From Herpetosiphon geysericola (GTDB taxonomy: Bacteria > Chloroflexota > Chloroflexia > Chloroflexales > Herpetosiphonaceae): a stretch of 64,000 nucleotides of DNA. The position numbers and the translations under genes were made by a program. Each line of letters opens with the position of its first letter. Positions within the stretch are counted from its first letter, which is position 1. Below the pieces are notes generated by a model. It saw only the letters and a program-made list of their open reading frames with translations, had not been told where the DNA came from and did not search any database. The stretch spans positions 248,001 through 312,000 of the forward strand of contig NZ_LGKP01000015.1 of the NCBI RefSeq assembly GCF_001306135.1, in the 5' to 3' direction. This document shows, in pieces, positions 10,366 through 36,433 of the stretch.

Positions 10366-10848
10366 AAAAGGCAGGAGAAAGAACATAGAGCATAGAACAT
10401 AGAACATAGGGAGCAGGGATAGAGAATCGGGATTTAACGCAGCGGCGCAGAACGAATCAAGGATGAAGGATGAGGGATGAGGGATGAGGGCTAAAAGCAG
10501 AAGTGAAAAAATGTAGGCTATGGGCTGTAGGCGTTGGATTTTGAGAACATAATCAAGCAAATCTGTGGCATCTGTGGCTAAAAAATAATCAGTATTCGGG
10601 CAACACATGAATCAATTTATTTAACGCAGAGGCGCAGAGCGAATGAAGGATGAAGGATGAAGGATGAGGGCTAAAAGTCAAAAGTCAAAAGGCAGAAGTG
10701 AAAAAAATGTAGGCTATGGGCTGATGGCATTGGTCTAGCAAAAACTGAATCAACATAATCTGTGCAATCTGTGGCGAAAAAACGTGCTTCGCGCTCTTCG
10801 TGCGCTTCGCGGTTTCCAAACTTACGATGCTCTATGTTCTATGCCCTT
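10366..10848. repeat. Modular intergenic repeat region 2
   Basis: 557 bp without a gene. The same words as region 1 occur: AGAACATAG units (10379-10408), TTTAACGCAGCGGCGCAGA (10434-10452), GGATGAN units (10461-10490) and a GCTATGGGCTGTAGGC array (10515-10535). Further on are ATCTGTGGC 9-nt units (10560-10580), a second TTTAACGCAGAGGCGCAGAG (10620-10640), GGATGAN units (10645-10672) and AAAAGTC units (10673-10705). AATCTGTGC/G units (10757-10776), CTTCGTGCGCTTCGCGG (10797-10813) and ATGTTCTATG (10832-10841) complete it. The last array overlaps the end of the response-regulator gene. Confidence 0.85.
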
Positions 10849-11681
10849 GCTTCGGCTAAAATATGGTAGAGCTGCCTAATTGCCTCTTTGCGGCGACGAT
10901 AATATTCGCTTTTGGAGAGGTGTAAGTGCTCTGCTTGGGCTTGCGGAGCCTGCAAATGCACAAATTCACCCTCCAAAATCGCCAAAGTTTCCAACACATT
11001 CAATTGCAGCGCCTCTCGAATAACGGTGGCAATTTTGGCTTGGGTTTGCAGCCCACGTTGATAATCACTAGTGCTATGCGGAAATAAATATTTAGCCAAA
11101 TGGCTTGCTCCAAGCCCGACCAAGCCTTGCCGATGCAGCTGAAGCAGCGCTTTGGTTAGGTCTTCTTCGCTCAAGGCTGGGCTTGGCGTTGGCGCAAGCA
11201 GCCGCAGGCGCAAAATATTCAGCAAGGCCTGGCTGCCGATTGGCGCTTGTTGGTTGCTTGCTGCTAGCGCTTGCTCGATTCGTTGGGCCAAATCTGGCGT
11301 GGCTGGCTTTTCAAGCACTGCATCGCAACCAAAGGCAATTGCCGTTTGATGAACTTCGCTGGCACTCAACGCAGTCAAGGCCACAATTGCTAGTTGCGGC
11401 AAACTCCCATTGGCGATTTGAATTTGCAATTGCAAAGCCAGGTTTGCTCCCGCCAACGACGATGCAACCACCTGCTGAAGCGCTGGATCGTTGGGCAAAT
11501 TCAGGTCGAGCAGCAACAGAATTTGGCTTGGCTGATAGCTCGTCAAGGCGTGCTGCAATTGCTCGGTCGCTTGTTTGCTCGAACGGGCCAAACTGGTTTG
11601 ATAACCAGCTGCTTGTAAATAGCGCGCTGCCAGTTGGCGATCGACTGCGAGATCATCAACAATAATGCAATACTTGCTCAT
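10839..11681 (-). CDS. Response regulator with C-terminal helix-turn-helix-like domain
   Basis: 280 aa. N-terminal receiver domain with acidic pocket (IIVDDLAVD), phospho-acceptor Asp in LLLLDLNLP, ALTA and VLEKPATP; the stretch between the phospho-Asp and the Lys is longer than usual. The C-terminal part is not a common effector, but the last 35 residues (AEHLHLSKSEYYRRRKEAIR) read as a helix-turn-helix. The start codon overlaps the kinase stop (ATGA at 11678-11681), so it is the cognate regulator of that kinase. Its final codons and TAG stop lie in repeat sequence. Confidence 0.8.
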   Translation of the reverse strand: MSKYCIIVDDLAVDRQLAARYLQAAGYQTSLARSSKQATEQLQHALTSYQPSQILLLLDLNLPNDPALQQVVASSLAGANLALQLQIQIANGSLPQLAIVALTALSASEVHQTAIAFGCDAVLEKPATPDLAQRIEQALAASNQQAPIGSQALLNILRLRLLAPTPSPALSEEDLTKALLQLHRQGLVGLGASHLAKYLFPHSTSDYQRGLQTQAKIATVIREALQLNVLETLAILEGEFVHLQAPQAQAEHLHLSKSEYYRRRKEAIRQLYHILAEARA

Positions 11682-12940
11682 TCAACATCCTGTGGAAACC
11701 GCATATGCAGCGTGCAGCCGATTGCTGAATCGAGCACATGCAAGGTTGCTGTTGCTTGCTTCAGCATTTGTTGCACTTGCTTCAAGCCCAAGCCTTGGCT
11801 GATTGGGCTGAAATCGCCGCGATTCAGCGCGGCGCGTAAATCTGGATGCATTCCAGCGCCATCATCGCTGATTTCGATTACCAAATGGTCGTTGTGCTGA
11901 AAACTGCGAATAACGACCTGCTGTTGGCAACGACTCAAACTATTATCAAGCAGATTAAACAACGCCCGCTCAAATTGCTCACGATCGGCAATAATGCGAC
12001 TGCCAGCGGCGATTTCGAGGCTTACATTGGCGATAGGTTCGGTATAGTAGGCTGCCAAACCGTTGATTGCTGGTTGCAGTTGAGTCAAACATTGCTCAAG
12101 CTCGATGCCGGTCAGGTTGGCGCGTTGGGTTGCCAATTGGTGGCGTGCTTGATCAAGCAAATTGTTGAGTTGGCGCTCGACTCGTTGGGTTGCCGCCAAG
12201 GCTGGCTGGATTGTGGGGCTGGTGAATGGTTGCTCAAAGGCTAAATGGTGGAGCAAGCCTTGGACGCTTTTTAGTGGCTGGCGCAAATCGTGTTTGAGCA
12301 AACTAAGCTGTTGGACATGTTGCTGCAAATCTTGAAGTTGTTGCTGCATGCTACTTTGTTGCTCTACCAGTTGCATTGTTTGGGCATGTTGCTGGCTGGC
12401 GTAGCGTAAGGTTTGGCGCGAAACGAGGCCAATGGCGCTGCACATCAACACAATGCTCAGCACCACAATTATCACCAACAACCATTCGTTGAAGATAATC
12501 GAGTGACCTGCTGCTAGATAATTCAGCCCGATCAAGCCACTGCTGTAGCCCAAAACCTGCCAAAATGGCATGACGACTGCAAAACCACAGACTGCAAATA
12601 ATTCAAAAATAAGCACATTCGGCGACCGCATGGCATACGCCAAGCTTGCATTATGGCTAATTGCAATCAGCATGCTCGCATGCCAAGCCCAATTAATCTG
12701 TTTACGTTGTAGCAACCACCAAACCAGCACCGGATTGAGCAGACTGCGGGCCAGGTGTAAGCCAAAAACCGCCATTGATTGCTGCTGATTGATTACAGCC
12801 AAGCCAAGCACGAGGGTAAATGGCAAAGCCAGCCCACATGCCAGCAGCGTGATGAGCACTATTAGCCGCCGCTTGTGATGCGCAAGCAATTGCTGATAGT
12901 GCTGCTGAATTTGTTGTTCGTCAAGGCTTGGCTGAATCAT
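11678..12940 (-). CDS. Membrane sensor histidine kinase
   Basis: About 420 aa. Roughly six N-terminal membrane helices (residues 25-175) form the sensor with no large extracellular domain. A Gln-rich coiled-coil linker follows, then an H-box (LLKHDLRQPLKS, His near residue 217). The HATPase domain has its N-box (FERALFNLLDNSL), G1 (EISDDGAGM) and G2 (GLGLKQVQQM). ATG at 12940 is preferred; a TTG at 12946 is in frame. The 5' end overlaps the upstream membrane-protein gene by 20 nt and the 3' end overlaps the regulator by 4 nt, so the unit is tightly coupled. Confidence 0.85.
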   Translation of the reverse strand: MIQPSLDEQQIQQHYQQLLAHHKRRLIVLITLLACGLALPFTLVLGLAVINQQQSMAVFGLHLARSLLNPVLVWWLLQRKQINWAWHASMLIAISHNASLAYAMRSPNVLIFELFAVCGFAVVMPFWQVLGYSSGLIGLNYLAAGHSIIFNEWLLVIIVVLSIVLMCSAIGLVSRQTLRYASQQHAQTMQLVEQQSSMQQQLQDLQQHVQQLSLLKHDLRQPLKSVQGLLHHLAFEQPFTSPTIQPALAATQRVERQLNNLLDQARHQLATQRANLTGIELEQCLTQLQPAINGLAAYYTEPIANVSLEIAAGSRIIADREQFERALFNLLDNSLSRCQQQVVIRSFQHNDHLVIEISDDGAGMHPDLRAALNRGDFSPISQGLGLKQVQQMLKQATATLHVLDSAIGCTLHMRFPQDVE

Positions 12941-13238
12941 AACCAATTCGCGATTTAAGCAAGGTTACCATTGCATGATAATCGTAATCAAACAGCCAAC
13001 CAAAACAGCAAAACAACATAAAGCTATTGAGCAAGCTACTTATGATTAATGCTCCTAGCTCAAATGGCAGCAAATAAGCCACAATGCTATGCAAAAAATC
13101 AATGCAGCCCACAATTAATAGCCCAATCAGCCCAAATACGAGCAGCTTGAACAATCCTTGTGGACGAAGATTATATATCAAGATCAACGCAGTTAATAGT
13201 GCAACCACAGCATGAATTAGCCATTGATGACTTAACAT
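12921..13238 (-). CDS. Small membrane protein upstream of a histidine kinase, 105 aa
   Basis: About three hydrophobic helices (residues 5-22, 30-60 and 62-85) with a short C-terminal tail. No family recognised. It overlaps the kinase start and begins 4 bp after the stop of the 40-aa gene, so it belongs to the same unit. A role as accessory membrane partner of the kinase is inferred from position only. Confidence 0.65.
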   Translation of the reverse strand: MLSHQWLIHAVVALLTALILIYNLRPQGLFKLLVFGLIGLLIVGCIDFLHSIVAYLLPFELGALIISSLLNSFMLFCCFGWLFDYDYHAMVTLLKSRIGYDSAKP

Positions 13239-15599: not shown

Positions 15600-15633
15600 A
15601 TCCCTGCTTGGGCTGATTTTTCCAAGCAGGGAT
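15600..15633 (-). terminator. Hairpin terminator of the 15655-17447 unit
   Basis: Perfect 12-bp inverted repeat, ATCCCTGCTTGG (15600-15611) and CCAAGCAGGGAT (15622-15633), with a 10-nt loop. It is 22 bp after the stop of the minus-strand gene at 15655. It lacks a strong U-tract on the minus strand. Confidence 0.65.
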
Positions 15634-15654: not shown

Positions 15655-15948
15655 TTAGCGCGATTGTTGTTTGGCGAGGCGTTCGTTGCCACGTTTGAAG
15701 TTGCCAGTGATTTTGGCCATCACCAGTTGGGCAGCCTCGCCTTCAAGCTCGGCGATGTTGGCGAGAAAACGTTGGGCTTTGGGGCCGCTCAAAATCATCA
15801 CTTGTTTGCCATACCAGCTAATAAAAACTTTGCCAGCTTTGCTGACTGAATAATCGAAGGCTTCGGCTTCGACGGCGTTGAGTTTGCGTGGGGCTGGTTC
15901 TTCGTTCGGTTCTTCATCAACGGTTTCAGGCTCGATTGGTTCGCTCAA
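15655..15948 (-). CDS. Small conserved-looking hypothetical protein, 97 aa
   Basis: Start is TTG at 15948 with AAGGAG 9-12 nt upstream. An acidic Pro/Glu-rich N-terminus (MSEPIEPETVDEEPNEEPAP) is followed by a compact domain containing KVFISWYGKQVMILSGPKA. The tail is basic. No family recognised. Third gene of a unit with the RuvC-fold protein 24 bp upstream. Confidence 0.65.
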   Translation of the reverse strand: MSEPIEPETVDEEPNEEPAPRKLNAVEAEAFDYSVSKAGKVFISWYGKQVMILSGPKAQRFLANIAELEGEAAQLVMAKITGNFKRGNERLAKQQSR

Positions 15949-15972
15949 GGTTGGCGACTCCTTCGCAAAAAA

Positions 15973-16440
15973 TTAGCGTCGGCGCACTTCGGGCGGAATT
16001 GCCGCAAGCCAGCCAAGCTGAACCACTGCCCATAAGCCCAATAGAATTGCTTCGGCTGCATCGTGACGCAATGAGGTGGGGCGTGGTGCATCCGACCATT
16101 CGATAACGCGGCGGGCTAGTTCATCGGCAACAGCTTTGGCTTGCTCTCCAGTGCGTTGTTCACGAGCATATAACAAGGTTGCGCGCCAAACCTCAGCACT
16201 TGTACGGATCAATTCTAGGTCGCGGCGGGTAGCTTCGCGCTCCCAAACATCAGCAATTTGGCCGCCGCCTTCGAGCACCAACACGCTTAAATCGCTAATT
16301 TCGGCCAATTGGCCACTGCTGCCCTTGCGCAAACGTGCCAACGAGCCATAGTTATGCGAACGATACCACACCAGTTTGCCTGCGCGGTTGTAGCATGCAA
16401 ATCCGGTGCGAATGCCTAAATCAACCGCGAGTAAACTCAT
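15973..16440 (-). CDS. RuvC/RNase H-fold protein (putative nuclease)
   Basis: 155 aa. The pattern fits the RuvC-like nuclease fold: first strand LLAVDLGIRTGFA with D7, a strand VLVLEGGGQIA with E57, and a C-terminal helix RHDAAEAILLGLWA with D127 and E130. Length is close to RuvC (about 170 aa), but the sequence is not canonical RuvC and no ruvA or ruvB is nearby. Its ATG overlaps the stop of the TPR gene (TAATG at 16438-16442), so the two are translated together. The acidic residues are in the right order for two-metal catalysis. Activity is inferred, and an inactive structural role is possible. Confidence 0.6.
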   Translation of the reverse strand: MSLLAVDLGIRTGFACYNRAGKLVWYRSHNYGSLARLRKGSSGQLAEISDLSVLVLEGGGQIADVWEREATRRDLELIRTSAEVWRATLLYAREQRTGEQAKAVADELARRVIEWSDAPRPTSLRHDAAEAILLGLWAVVQLGWLAAIPPEVRRR

Positions 16441-17447
16441 TAGCGTTCTCCAAAACTATCGCCGCGTTGCTGGTTGCTCAGCTCTTGATTGTAGGCATCG
16501 AGGCCACCAATCGCTCGTTGCAGATGACCATCGGCTTCTTGCAAGCGCAAAGCTGCGCGGTTCGCAATTGCCACGTTATAGTTGGTATAGTATTCCAAAA
16601 TATCATCAAACGCCGCTTGTTCTAATTGCAGGCCTTGTTTGTATTCATCGTGAATTTCGGCCAAAATATCGGGTGCTTTGATGCGCTCTAAATCGGTGTA
16701 GGCTTGGCGCACAACATCGCGATAGCGTTTGGCAGCCTCAATTTGCTCGGTGGCCACGGTCGAGCGATCGCTGGTTTCGCGATAGCTGGTCGCTGCTTGA
16801 TCGAGGCGCTGGCGAATTTCGCCAACTTGGCTTAAATAGCGCAACAGCTCTGCTTGATTAATTTCCGAGGCCGCAACTACCGCCTGTGCATCAGGCTGAT
16901 TAGGGTTGGCGAGTTCGAGCATTGGCGGCACTTCTGGCAAGGGCTGGCCTTTGGCCACCGCCAGCATCACCCCAGTAAAGCTAATTGCCAGAATCAAGGC
17001 AACCAAGGATGCGACGCGCACAATTTTGCCGCTGCGCTCAGAATCGCGCCATTCTTGCCACCACGCTTTTTCAACCGCCGGAGCCGCTTCTGCAGCTCGC
17101 TCCTCGATGGTGGGAATGCTAATTTGTTGCAAGGCGCTTGGCGGCTTGGGCGTGGTAATGCTGGCAGCTTTGGTTTGTTGTTGCTGCTGAATCCAGACTA
17201 ACCCTTTGCGAGCTTGTTGATTATCGGGGTTGATTTTGAGCGCAGATTGCAAACAAAATTCGATGTCACGCTGCTCGTCGAGCACTCCGCTTAGCCAAAG
17301 CCAAGCCTGCTCATGGCGTGGATCAAGCTGAACTGCCTTGGTCAACAAACCAGCAGCAATTCGGCGTTGACCGCCGCGCGCCGCCGCCAAACCACGCTCA
17401 TACAAGCGCTGCGCCTCAACACTGTAGGTTGTAATGCCTTGTTCCAT
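16440..17447 (-). CDS. TPR-containing single-pass membrane protein
   Basis: 335 aa. Two tetratricopeptide-like units (about residues 9-75, with AQRLYERGLAAARGGQ and AVQLDPRHEQAWLWLSG) come first. A Pro/Glu linker leads to one membrane helix near residues 143-165 (IVRVASLVALILAISFTGVML). The extracytoplasmic part (about residues 190-335) is helical and may form a coiled coil. No enzyme motif. It heads the unit with the RuvC-fold protein. The ATG is only about 10 nt downstream of an AAAAGGC-type repeat array and lacks a good ribosome site. Confidence 0.75.
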   Translation of the reverse strand: MEQGITTYSVEAQRLYERGLAAARGGQRRIAAGLLTKAVQLDPRHEQAWLWLSGVLDEQRDIEFCLQSALKINPDNQQARKGLVWIQQQQQTKAASITTPKPPSALQQISIPTIEERAAEAAPAVEKAWWQEWRDSERSGKIVRVASLVALILAISFTGVMLAVAKGQPLPEVPPMLELANPNQPDAQAVVAASEINQAELLRYLSQVGEIRQRLDQAATSYRETSDRSTVATEQIEAAKRYRDVVRQAYTDLERIKAPDILAEIHDEYKQGLQLEQAAFDDILEYYTNYNVAIANRAALRLQEADGHLQRAIGGLDAYNQELSNQQRGDSFGER

Positions 17448-17539: not shown

Positions 17540-18796
17540 TTAATGGCCTGGAATATAGCGATTGATTGAGCGTTGCACGATCAACGGATCTTGCTTTAAC
17601 GATTCGCGAATGTAAGTCCAGTTTTGGGGATCTTCGCTGCCCAAGCGCCAAATCGCAATCCCAGCTAAATCGTTTTCGCGAATCATCTCCATTTTGGCGG
17701 TCAGCGAGCGATAATTCGAAAACCAGACTGTTCGTCCCGCGTAGCTAAATGTGGATTCTTGCACTTGCTGGCCGCCATCTTCTTCGACCAAGCGAATTTG
17801 GGGCTGATAGGCTGCCTTAATTTCTTCGACCTCGGTATAGGTGCGGGCGATCCCGAAGCCGCCATTATTTGGCCAATCGTAGGCATAAAACGAAATGCCA
17901 ATTTGAATCTTGCTGGGGTCGACTTGGGTTTTGGCATATTCGGCAACTGCCTTGACCCAGAACATTGGTGCAATTGGGCCTGGTTCTGAGCCACGCCAGC
18001 TATAATCGTAGGTCATAATCCGCAAGCGATCGACCACTTTGCCCAAATCTGCATAGTTTTGGTAATCGGGACGGCCTGTGTGGGCATGCACAGCCACGGT
18101 CAGCAATTTATTTTCTGCATGCAGCGCTGCGCCTAATTCAGTCATAAAGGCGGTAAATTCATCTTCATAATCAAGCGAAAGCGATTCATAATCAATGTCG
18201 ATGCCATCGTAGCCATAGGTGCGCACTTCTTCCATAATAATTTTAATATGGTTGGTGCGGCTTTCTGGCGTAGCCAAGGCCACTGAAGCAGCTTCCAAAT
18301 CTTCAATATTATGAATGGTTGGAATGATCAGAACATTATTTTCTTTGGCAATCTGCACCAATTCTGCATCACGCGAGCCAATATCGGCGATCAGCGTGCC
18401 ATCGGGTCGTACACCATACCAAAATGGGCTGACCTCATCGAGAATATCTTTATTGGCCTCGAAGGTAGCGCGGGCGGCTTCTGCATCAAACGAGGTTGGT
18501 AGCCAAGCAGCGACATAGCGCCCAGTTTTAGGGTGCACGCCGCGCACATCGTTGGCGCTCGCAGGCAGCTCAGAGCCACCTTGGCCATCGGCAACCGTGT
18601 TTGGCAACGGCTGCAAGGTTGGCGCAACGAAGGTCGGCATCGGCAAGGCGGTTGAGGTTGGGCGAGGTAGCAGGGCTTGGGCGGCGGCATCAGCGGCGCG
18701 GCTATGTTTGATTCGTAAATCGATAAACTGCCAGAGAAACACGATCCAAACCAAAATTCCGATTGCCACAGCCCCACGAAAAAGATGACGAAACAT
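17540..18796 (-). CDS. GH18-family glycoside hydrolase, membrane-anchored
   Basis: 418 aa. An N-terminal membrane anchor (residues 8-24) and a Pro/Thr-rich linker precede a GH18 TIM barrel. The catalytic DxxDxDxE motif is intact as YGYDGIDIDYE (D197, D200, D202, E204). RLRIMTYDYSWRG and GIAIWRLGSEDPQ are typical of the YaaH/spore-cortex-type and chitinase-like GH18 group. The likely substrate is N-acetylglucosamine polymer (peptidoglycan or chitin-like); which one cannot be decided. It acts outside the membrane. Confidence 0.87.
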   Translation of the reverse strand: MFRHLFRGAVAIGILVWIVFLWQFIDLRIKHSRAADAAAQALLPRPTSTALPMPTFVAPTLQPLPNTVADGQGGSELPASANDVRGVHPKTGRYVAAWLPTSFDAEAARATFEANKDILDEVSPFWYGVRPDGTLIADIGSRDAELVQIAKENNVLIIPTIHNIEDLEAASVALATPESRTNHIKIIMEEVRTYGYDGIDIDYESLSLDYEDEFTAFMTELGAALHAENKLLTVAVHAHTGRPDYQNYADLGKVVDRLRIMTYDYSWRGSEPGPIAPMFWVKAVAEYAKTQVDPSKIQIGISFYAYDWPNNGGFGIARTYTEVEEIKAAYQPQIRLVEEDGGQQVQESTFSYAGRTVWFSNYRSLTAKMEMIRENDLAGIAIWRLGSEDPQNWTYIRESLKQDPLIVQRSINRYIPGH

Positions 18797-36141: not shown

Positions 36142-36181
36142 CTAAAACAAAATACGGACGTAGAGTGTTCTACGTCCGTAT
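36142..36181 (-). terminator. Intrinsic terminator of the tRNA-Asp pair
   Basis: 13-bp perfect stem, ATACGGACGTAGA (36152-36164) and TCTACGTCCGTAT (36169-36181), with a GTGT loop. On the minus strand it is followed by TTTTGTTTTAG. It lies 4 bp past the second tRNA. Confidence 0.88.
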
Positions 36182-36185
36182 CGTC

Positions 36186-36262
36186 TGGCGGGCCCGAGGG
36201 GATTCGAACCCCCGATCTCCACTGTGACAGAGTGGCATGTTAGGCCGCTACACCACGAGCCC
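36186..36262 (-). tRNA. tRNA-Asp (GTC), copy 2
   Basis: 77 nt with encoded CCA. Acceptor stem GGGCTCG pairs with CGGGCCC. The anticodon arm CCACT-CTGTCAC-AGTGG gives anticodon GTC, and the T-loop is GGTTCGAATCC. Identical to the copy at 36297. Confidence 0.96.
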
Positions 36263-36296
36263 CGATCAGGTTGTTGTTGCGCTGGCAGATAAAAAT

Positions 36297-36373
36297 TGGC
36301 GGGCCCGAGGGGATTCGAACCCCCGATCTCCACTGTGACAGAGTGGCATGTTAGGCCGCTACACCACGAGCCC
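36297..36373 (-). tRNA. tRNA-Asp (GTC), copy 1
   Basis: 77 nt with encoded CCA, identical to the copy at 36186 and separated from it by 34 bp. Transcribed first from the promoter at 36405-36433. Confidence 0.96.
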
Positions 36374-36404
36374 GCGTTTTTGCTTGCCTCGCGACAACGG
36401 GGAT

Positions 36405-36433
36405 ATACTACCACAGACTCGTTTTTTTTGCAA
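36405..36433 (-). promoter_or_regulatory. Promoter of the tRNA-Asp pair
   Basis: Minus strand: -35 TTGCAA (36428-36433), a 17-bp spacer and -10 TAGTAT (36405-36410). The predicted start is about 25 nt before the first tRNA. Confidence 0.65.

What the first reader, a model, noticed from the sequence alone, without database searches (positions are those of the whole stretch)
15655..17447. RuvC-fold protein coupled to a TPR membrane protein
A compact RuvC-like protein with D7, E57, D127 and E130 in order is translated by TAATG overlap from a single-pass TPR protein and followed by an acidic small protein. No recombination genes are near. The combination does not match a known defence or repair module that I can name.
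Basis: partly seen in the sequence, partly recalled or inferred. Interest (0 to 1): 0.55.

Follow-up and report, generated by a model that had tools for sequence, protein, structure and literature searches.

The report
Third RuvC-type nuclease, short DNA-probing loop
This bacterium carries, besides its two usual RuvC-fold proteins, an uncatalogued small protein that looks like an enzyme for cutting branched DNA; relatives occur in scattered species of several phyla, while the membrane and acidic proteins next to it appear to be only local neighbours.

Summary
The 155-aa ORF (15973-16440, minus) is a real gene under purifying selection. D7, E57, D127 and E130 are kept in the 38 homologues compared, and the predicted fold matches Holliday-junction resolvases better than YqgF. 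It overlaps the upstream TPR membrane gene by TAATG. The proposed three-protein module is not supported: TPR adjacency occurs in 8 of 8 carriers of the window's own family but 0 of 22 carriers elsewhere in the order; the TPR gene pairs with an upstream GH18 gene even in genomes lacking the nuclease; small-protein homologues lie apart from the nuclease in three carriers.

The nuclease belongs to a sparsely distributed bacterial family without a Pfam or NCBIfam match, coexisting with canonical RuvC and RuvX. It lacks RuvC's aromatic junction-probing loop: the Glu is followed by Gly-rich EGGG or EGDR, and the Glu-to-basic-residue segment is about 12 residues shorter. Closest structural parallels are poxvirus resolvases, whose short loop goes with cutting many branched DNAs, and MOC1. 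Best reading: a stand-alone, RuvAB-independent, metal-dependent endonuclease for branched DNA with relaxed specificity. Activity and substrate are inferred, not shown.

The parts
15973..16440 (-). RuvC-fold nuclease-like gene, 155 aa; predicted catalytic D7, E57, D127, E130; invariant R86 and R93, near-invariant K102; Gly-rich EGGG turn after E57
16440..17447 (-). TPR protein with one putative membrane segment (335 aa); stop overlaps the nuclease start (TAATG); neighbour, not a conserved partner
15655..15948 (-). small acidic protein (97 aa, TTG start preceded by AAGGAG); neighbour within the window's family only
17540..18796 (-). GH18-type protein; neighbour of the TPR gene also in genomes without the nuclease
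15600..15633 (.). perfect inverted repeat (12-base arms, 10-base loop) just downstream of the small gene; possible 3' end of the GH18-TPR-nuclease-small gene run
   Evidence: not reported by the terminator scan

Best explanation
The gene encodes a stand-alone member of the RuvC-type (RNase H-fold) Holliday-junction-resolvase superfamily. Inferred mechanism: it dimerises through the helix after E57, as RuvC does; D7, E57, D127 and E130 bind metal ions (Mg2+/Mn2+); conserved R86, R93 and K102 hold the DNA backbone; and it nicks strands at branch points. Because the aromatic probing loop of RuvC is replaced by a short Gly-rich turn and the loop/helix segment is about 12 residues shorter, the DNA-binding face should be flat, as in fowlpox resolvase. 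I therefore predict relaxed sequence and branch specificity and independence from RuvAB: a back-up or clean-up enzyme acting beside canonical RuvC. Shown: gene reality, fold (predicted model), conserved tetrad, missing loop, coexistence with RuvC and RuvX, no neighbour shared across lineages in the loci read. Inferred: nuclease activity, substrate, dimer, cellular role.
For: AlphaFold2 model: mean pLDDT 90.9, pTM 0.89, from 7 sequences. PDB second look: fowlpox resolvase Z 15.8 (rmsd 2.2, 132 aligned), canarypox 14.7, MOC1 15.3-14.0, RuvC and phage RuvC 14.7-11.9, against YqgF/RuvX 10.2 and 9.8. Foldseek's first 13 PDB hits are RuvC or MOC1; many of the named viral hits are annotated as RuvC-type resolvases. 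Tetrad conserved. A local profile alignment places K102, D127 and E130 on the canonical Lys, Asp, Asp, and R86 on the VK lysine (P 0.0007, but probability only 26%). phrog_1770 (HJ resolvase) matches 15 of 22 members, best E 6e-5. Wedge consensus E(X)2-4[YF]: 0 of 38 here; the equivalent E[EQD][LIV][FY] is present in 14 of 14 canonical RuvC. Glu-to-basic spacing 29-30 against 41-42. 28 of 30 carriers also have canonical RuvC and 29 of 30 have RuvX. The fowlpox study ties its short loop and helix to promiscuous cutting (PMC6962361, passages).
Against: No biochemistry. No Pfam PF02075 or NCBIfam match and no PDB sequence match by profile at E up to 10. The global profile alignment to canonical RuvC is poor (probability 3%). 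The transcription factor TEFM scores Z 11.8, level with the lowest RuvC row, so the fold alone does not prove a nuclease (that TEFM is not a resolvase is taken from the entry titles and recall). Losing the junction-opening aromatic could equally mean a non-junction or RNA substrate; fowlpox resolvase itself keeps F64 in its loop. No recombination gene was seen adjacent in the loci read, apart from the repair gene endonuclease V in one lineage. The family is sparse (11 of 301, 14 of 345 and 2 of 246 sampled genomes). Absence of PF02075 does not predict presence: 2 of 4 genomes without it carry the gene.
Confidence: 0.6

Rival explanations
1. It is an RNA or RNA:DNA nuclease with a RuvC/YqgF-like fold (ribosome or RNA metabolism), not a branched-DNA enzyme.
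For: DrYqgF, a relative in fold, is reported to be an RNase (PMC9601230, passages). Some family members sit beside translation or transcription genes: PrmA in 3 loci, NusA divergent in 5 loci of one genus. The junction-probing aromatic is missing.
Against: Beta-4 carries the Glu as in HJ resolvases; YqgF and Tex are reported to have moved it (PMC3985635, passages). YqgF Z is about 10 against 12-16 for resolvases. RuvX is already present. Neighbours differ between lineages.
Confidence: 0.17
2. It is a RuvC-equivalent strict Holliday-junction resolvase that works with RuvAB and duplicates canonical RuvC.
For: Same fold and tetrad; conserved basic residues align with RuvC lysines.
Against: RuvC wedge aromatic missing in 38 of 38 and segment shortened; canonical RuvC is already present in 28 of 30 carriers. 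No ruvA or ruvB was among the neighbours identified, but only some neighbours were identified and ruvAB was not searched for.
Confidence: 0.1
3. The TPR membrane protein, nuclease and small acidic protein form one functional complex (membrane-tethered nuclease with a regulator).
For: TAATG overlap; same strand; adjacency in all 8 carriers of the window's family for the TPR gene and in 7 of 8 for the small gene.
Against: Neither gene found beside the nuclease in 22 of 22 carriers outside that family; each occurs without the nuclease.
Confidence: 0.06
4. It is part of an anti-phage or mobile-element function (defence nuclease or prophage remnant).
For: Sparse, cross-phylum distribution; weak kinship with phage resolvases.
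Against: No PADLOC match for 5 proteins; no match in the phage, plasmid or viral-contig collections; same gene order in 6 of 6 Herpetosiphon genomes; dN/dS low.
Confidence: 0.05

Closest known systems
Bacterial RuvC (PF02075)
   Same: RNase H fold with beta-4 Glu and two acids three residues apart in the last helix; basic residues align in a weak profile alignment; Z 11.9-14.7
   Different: No PF02075 match; lacks the E-x-x-F wedge loop; segment after Glu about 12 residues shorter; coexists with RuvC
Poxvirus resolvases (fowlpox, canarypox)
   Same: Highest Z (15.8; canarypox 14.7; tied with MOC1); compact; short loop and helix after the catalytic Glu; acids D7, E60, D132, D135 in fowlpox (PMC6962361)
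   Different: 13-18% identity on the structural alignment; fowlpox keeps F64 in its loop, absent here; bacterial chromosomal gene with no viral relative found
Chloroplast resolvase MOC1
   Same: Z 15.3-14.0; same fold; one of its four catalytic acids is Glu E258, near the C-terminal end, as E130 is here (PMC7078210; equivalence not tested)
   Different: MOC1 has the aromatic Y180 and D183 base-recognition loop; this family has none
Phage HJ resolvases (phrog_1770; bIL67 RuvC)
   Same: Best sequence link: 15 of 22 members match phrog_1770; bIL67 RuvC Z 14.0
   Different: The window protein itself has no phrog match; no phage record holds a close relative
RuvX/YqgF (PF03652)
   Same: RNase H fold
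   Different: No Pfam match; lower Z; Glu at the end of beta-4; separate RuvX gene in 59 of 60 genomes

Membership tests
RuvC-type Holliday-junction resolvase superfamily (broad) | RNase H fold closest to HJ resolvases | tested here: met
   predicted model
RuvC-type Holliday-junction resolvase superfamily (broad) | acid on beta-1, Glu on beta-4, two acids three residues apart in the C-terminal helix | tested here: met
   D7, E57, D127, E130 conserved; strands and helices; the extra acid as an HJR trait from PMC3985635. Spatial clustering was not measured
Canonical RuvC (PF02075) | match to the family profile over its cut-off | tested here: not met
Canonical RuvC (PF02075) | aromatic junction-probing loop after the catalytic Glu | tested here: not met
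   0 of 38 against 14 of 14 canonical
Canonical RuvC (PF02075) | works with RuvAB; dimer; cuts HJ symmetrically | not testable with these tools
   needs biochemistry
Poxvirus resolvase | similar fold with short loop and helix after Glu | tested here: met
   Z 15.8; helix 60-72; segment shorter than RuvC. Works like, not member
Poxvirus resolvase | sequence kinship | tested here: inconclusive
   17-18% identity to fowlpox resolvase on structural alignment; no PDB sequence match by profile
RuvX/YqgF | match to PF03652 | tested here: not met
RuvX/YqgF | beta-4 acid relocated (as reported in PMC3985635) | tested here: not met
   E57 at the end of beta-4, 38 of 38
phrog_1770 phage HJ resolvase | profile match | tested here: inconclusive
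   15 of 22 family members match at E up to 1, best 6e-5; window protein does not
Known defence system | match to PADLOC models | tested here: not met
   0 matches for 5 proteins

The most novel reading that the evidence does not exclude
A previously uncatalogued, chromosomal bacterial family of wedge-less RuvC-type nucleases, a cellular analogue of the promiscuous poxvirus resolvases, forms a third branched-DNA-cutting line next to RuvC and RuvX in scattered Chloroflexota, Thermodesulfobacteriota, Planctomycetota and Gemmatimonadota.
Probability: 0.4. Interest if true: 0.6.

Novelty: new variant of a known kind. Interest (0 to 1): 0.42.

Why it matters
The loop after the catalytic Glu is thought to help set what RuvC-type enzymes cut. 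A natural bacterial family that lacks it in all 38 members examined is a clean test of that idea. If active, it would also show that some bacteria with RuvC and RuvX keep a third, RuvAB-independent branched-DNA nuclease, which would matter when interpreting ruvC mutants in Chloroflexota and Thermodesulfobacteriota. If inactive on junctions, it would point to a new substrate for the resolvase fold.

Tried and rejected
Trio as a module: rejected from distribution. Defence island: no PADLOC match. Phage or plasmid origin: no close relatives found. Shared partner elsewhere: none found. Endonuclease V lies downstream in 7 related f3 loci (5 as a called cluster, 2 read in frame; one confirmed by Pfam), PrmA in 3 loci (2 of the 3 confirmed by Pfam), NusA and M20 on either side in the 5 fetched g6 loci (one confirmed), FKBP upstream in 2 (one confirmed). 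These are separate syntenic blocks, so I do not read them as function; most other neighbours were clustered but not named. Replacement of missing RuvC: rejected, since 28 of 30 carriers and 28 of 30 non-carriers have PF02075. Family tree: 15 of 35 inner branches under support 80, only 10 well supported, rows of different phyla interleave; no claim of direction or transfer is made. Small protein: model weak (pLDDT 70, pTM 0.52), no fold search made. Profile search of solved-structure sequences: no match. TEFM (Z 11.8-9.9), IS110-type recombinases (11.3), IscB, Tex, SPT6 and MutS-type rows (about 10-11) were taken as the shared fold only; TEFM overlaps the lowest RuvC row.

Literature: seven searches; no title or abstract start listed there describes this family. 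Of six papers I saw only passages returned by the find function (PMC3864405, PMC3985635, PMC7078210, PMC9601230, PMC6962361, PMC3834835). Absence from print is not established beyond these searches of an open-licence library.

Corrections made on the way: one search read loci in the wrong orientation, replaced; one search replaced; row L067 was cut to the wrong stretch and L056 began after D7 (rechecked; the tree was not rebuilt); one search picked wrong frames, replaced, where 14 of 15 canonical RuvC were recovered; mis-picked 3 of those 14, replaced. In one search, two of the canonical Glu-to-Lys distances hit the neighbouring Lys; I quote the other measure. The 38 rows leave out G535 and G412 (contig-edge fragments), L101 and L097 (same genes as L034 and L035), and 9 of the 30 carriers (five close g6 genomes, four Herpetosiphon).

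Full report
What is there. Four minus-strand genes lie in a row: GH18-type (17540-18796), TPR protein (16440-17447), RuvC-like (15973-16440) and a small acidic protein (15655-15948). The TPR stop and the RuvC-like ATG overlap as TAATG, with GGAG upstream. The small gene has a TTG start preceded by AAGGAG. A perfect 12-base inverted repeat follows it at 15600-15633. The window is G000:C39 of a Herpetosiphon-like genome; H. llansteffanensis and H. giganteus carry 100% and 98% identical proteins. Substitution ratios between Herpetosiphon species show purifying selection on all three genes, weakest on the small one.

The RuvC-like family. The protein has relatives in 30 of 60 related genomes, 11 of 301 genomes of the phylum (10 of the 11 are among those already counted), 14 of 345 of the phylum of Geobacter sp. 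OR-1 and 2 of 246 of the phylum of a Phycisphaerales MAG. Named carriers outside Herpetosiphon are Geobacter sp. OR-1, a Desulfohalobiaceae MAG, a Phycisphaerales MAG and a Gemmatimonadetes MAG at 52-56% identity. No relatives appeared in phages, plasmids or viral contigs. In 22 aligned members 28 columns are invariant, among them D7, E57, G58-G60, W66, W85, R86, R93, G98, K102, D127 and E130. In a wider set of 38, E57, G58, W66, W85, R86, R93, D127 and E130 are kept in 38 of 38, D7 in 37 with one start-codon artefact, K102 in 37 (one Arg), G98 in 37, and G59/G60 in 36.

Fold. A model from seven sequences has mean pLDDT 90.9 and pTM 0.89. Strands 2-7, 11-18, 23-30, 51-57 and 76-80 and helices 34-46, 60-72, 82-89, 98-115 and 126-141 give the RNase H order, with D7 and E57 at strand ends and D127/E130 at the start of the last helix. 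Foldseek's first 13 PDB hits are RuvC or MOC1. The second aligner ranks fowlpox resolvase (Z 15.8), MOC1 (15.3-14.0) and RuvC (14.7-11.9) above YqgF (10.2, 9.8); differences under 1 are ties, so poxvirus and MOC1 are not separated, and the transcription factor TEFM (11.8) is level with the lowest RuvC row. By sequence the link is weak: no Pfam or NCBIfam match, no PDB sequence match, 15 of 22 members match phrog_1770, an HJ-resolvase family, best E 6e-5, and a local profile alignment with 14 canonical RuvC sequences pairs R86, K102, D127 and E130 with RuvC Lys, Lys, Asp and Asp (probability only 26%, P 0.0007; the global alignment 3%).

What differs. In RuvC, MOC1 and Ydc2 the catalytic Glu is followed by a loop E(X)2-4Y/F, and the aromatic stacks at the junction in MOC1 and E. 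coli RuvC (PMC7078210, passages; F73 of T. thermophilus RuvC in PMC3834835, passages). Here 0 of 38 members fit and none has an aromatic or His within six residues; the segment is EGGG (36) or EGDR (2), with Trp nine residues after the Glu in each. All 14 canonical RuvC sequences recovered from carriers and relatives keep E[EQD][LIV][FY]. From the Glu to the aligned basic residue there are 29-30 residues here and 41-42 in canonical RuvC. In fowlpox resolvase a shorter loop and helix at this place make a flat surface, and swapping in the RuvC loop made the enzyme more junction-selective (PMC6962361, passages). By analogy I expect relaxed branch specificity. That is inference; fowlpox resolvase still has F64 in its loop, and this family has no aromatic there.

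Company it keeps. Canonical RuvC is present elsewhere in the window's genome and in 56 of 60 genomes searched; RuvX in 59 of 60. Carriers and non-carriers have PF02075 equally often (28 of 30 each). So this is an additional protein, not a substitute. The TPR gene is next to the nuclease in 8 of 8 carriers of family f1 and in 0 of 22 carriers of other families (pieces of 2.3-3.5 kb; larger regions of 17 of the 22). The small gene is next to it in 7 of 8. In four loci fetched from genomes that lack the nuclease (chosen among good TPR matches) the TPR gene sits beside GH18 in 4 of 4. Elsewhere the nuclease has other neighbours: endonuclease V, PrmA, NusA, M20 peptidase, FKBP, cupin, fatty-acid desaturase. 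It therefore behaves as a free-standing gene that lies behind the GH18-TPR pair in Herpetosiphonaceae; translational coupling there may set its level but does not define its function.

Verdict. Observation confirmed; module interpretation not supported; protein most likely an uncatalogued short-loop variant of the RuvC-type resolvase superfamily that cuts branched DNA without RuvAB (0.6). Main doubt: substrate, since loss of the junction-probing residue could also mean RNA or another DNA form.

Noticed in passing
17540-18796 and 16440-17447 (minus): GH18-type gene and TPR membrane gene form a pair kept in 4 of 4 loci fetched from genomes of two other families that lack the nuclease.
   Followed up: partly
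36186-36262 and 36297-36373 (minus): Two tandem tRNA-Asp (GTC) genes; the ORF called at 36142-36414 is only a read-through of them.
   Followed up: yes
10839-13238 (minus): Response regulator and histidine kinase overlapping by 4 bases, preceded by a small ORF with hydrophobic stretches (by eye); kept in H. aurantiacus.
   Followed up: no
L052:7457-8137 (-) and six related f3 loci: Endonuclease V lies just downstream of the RuvC-like gene in one Chloroflexota lineage.
   Followed up: partly
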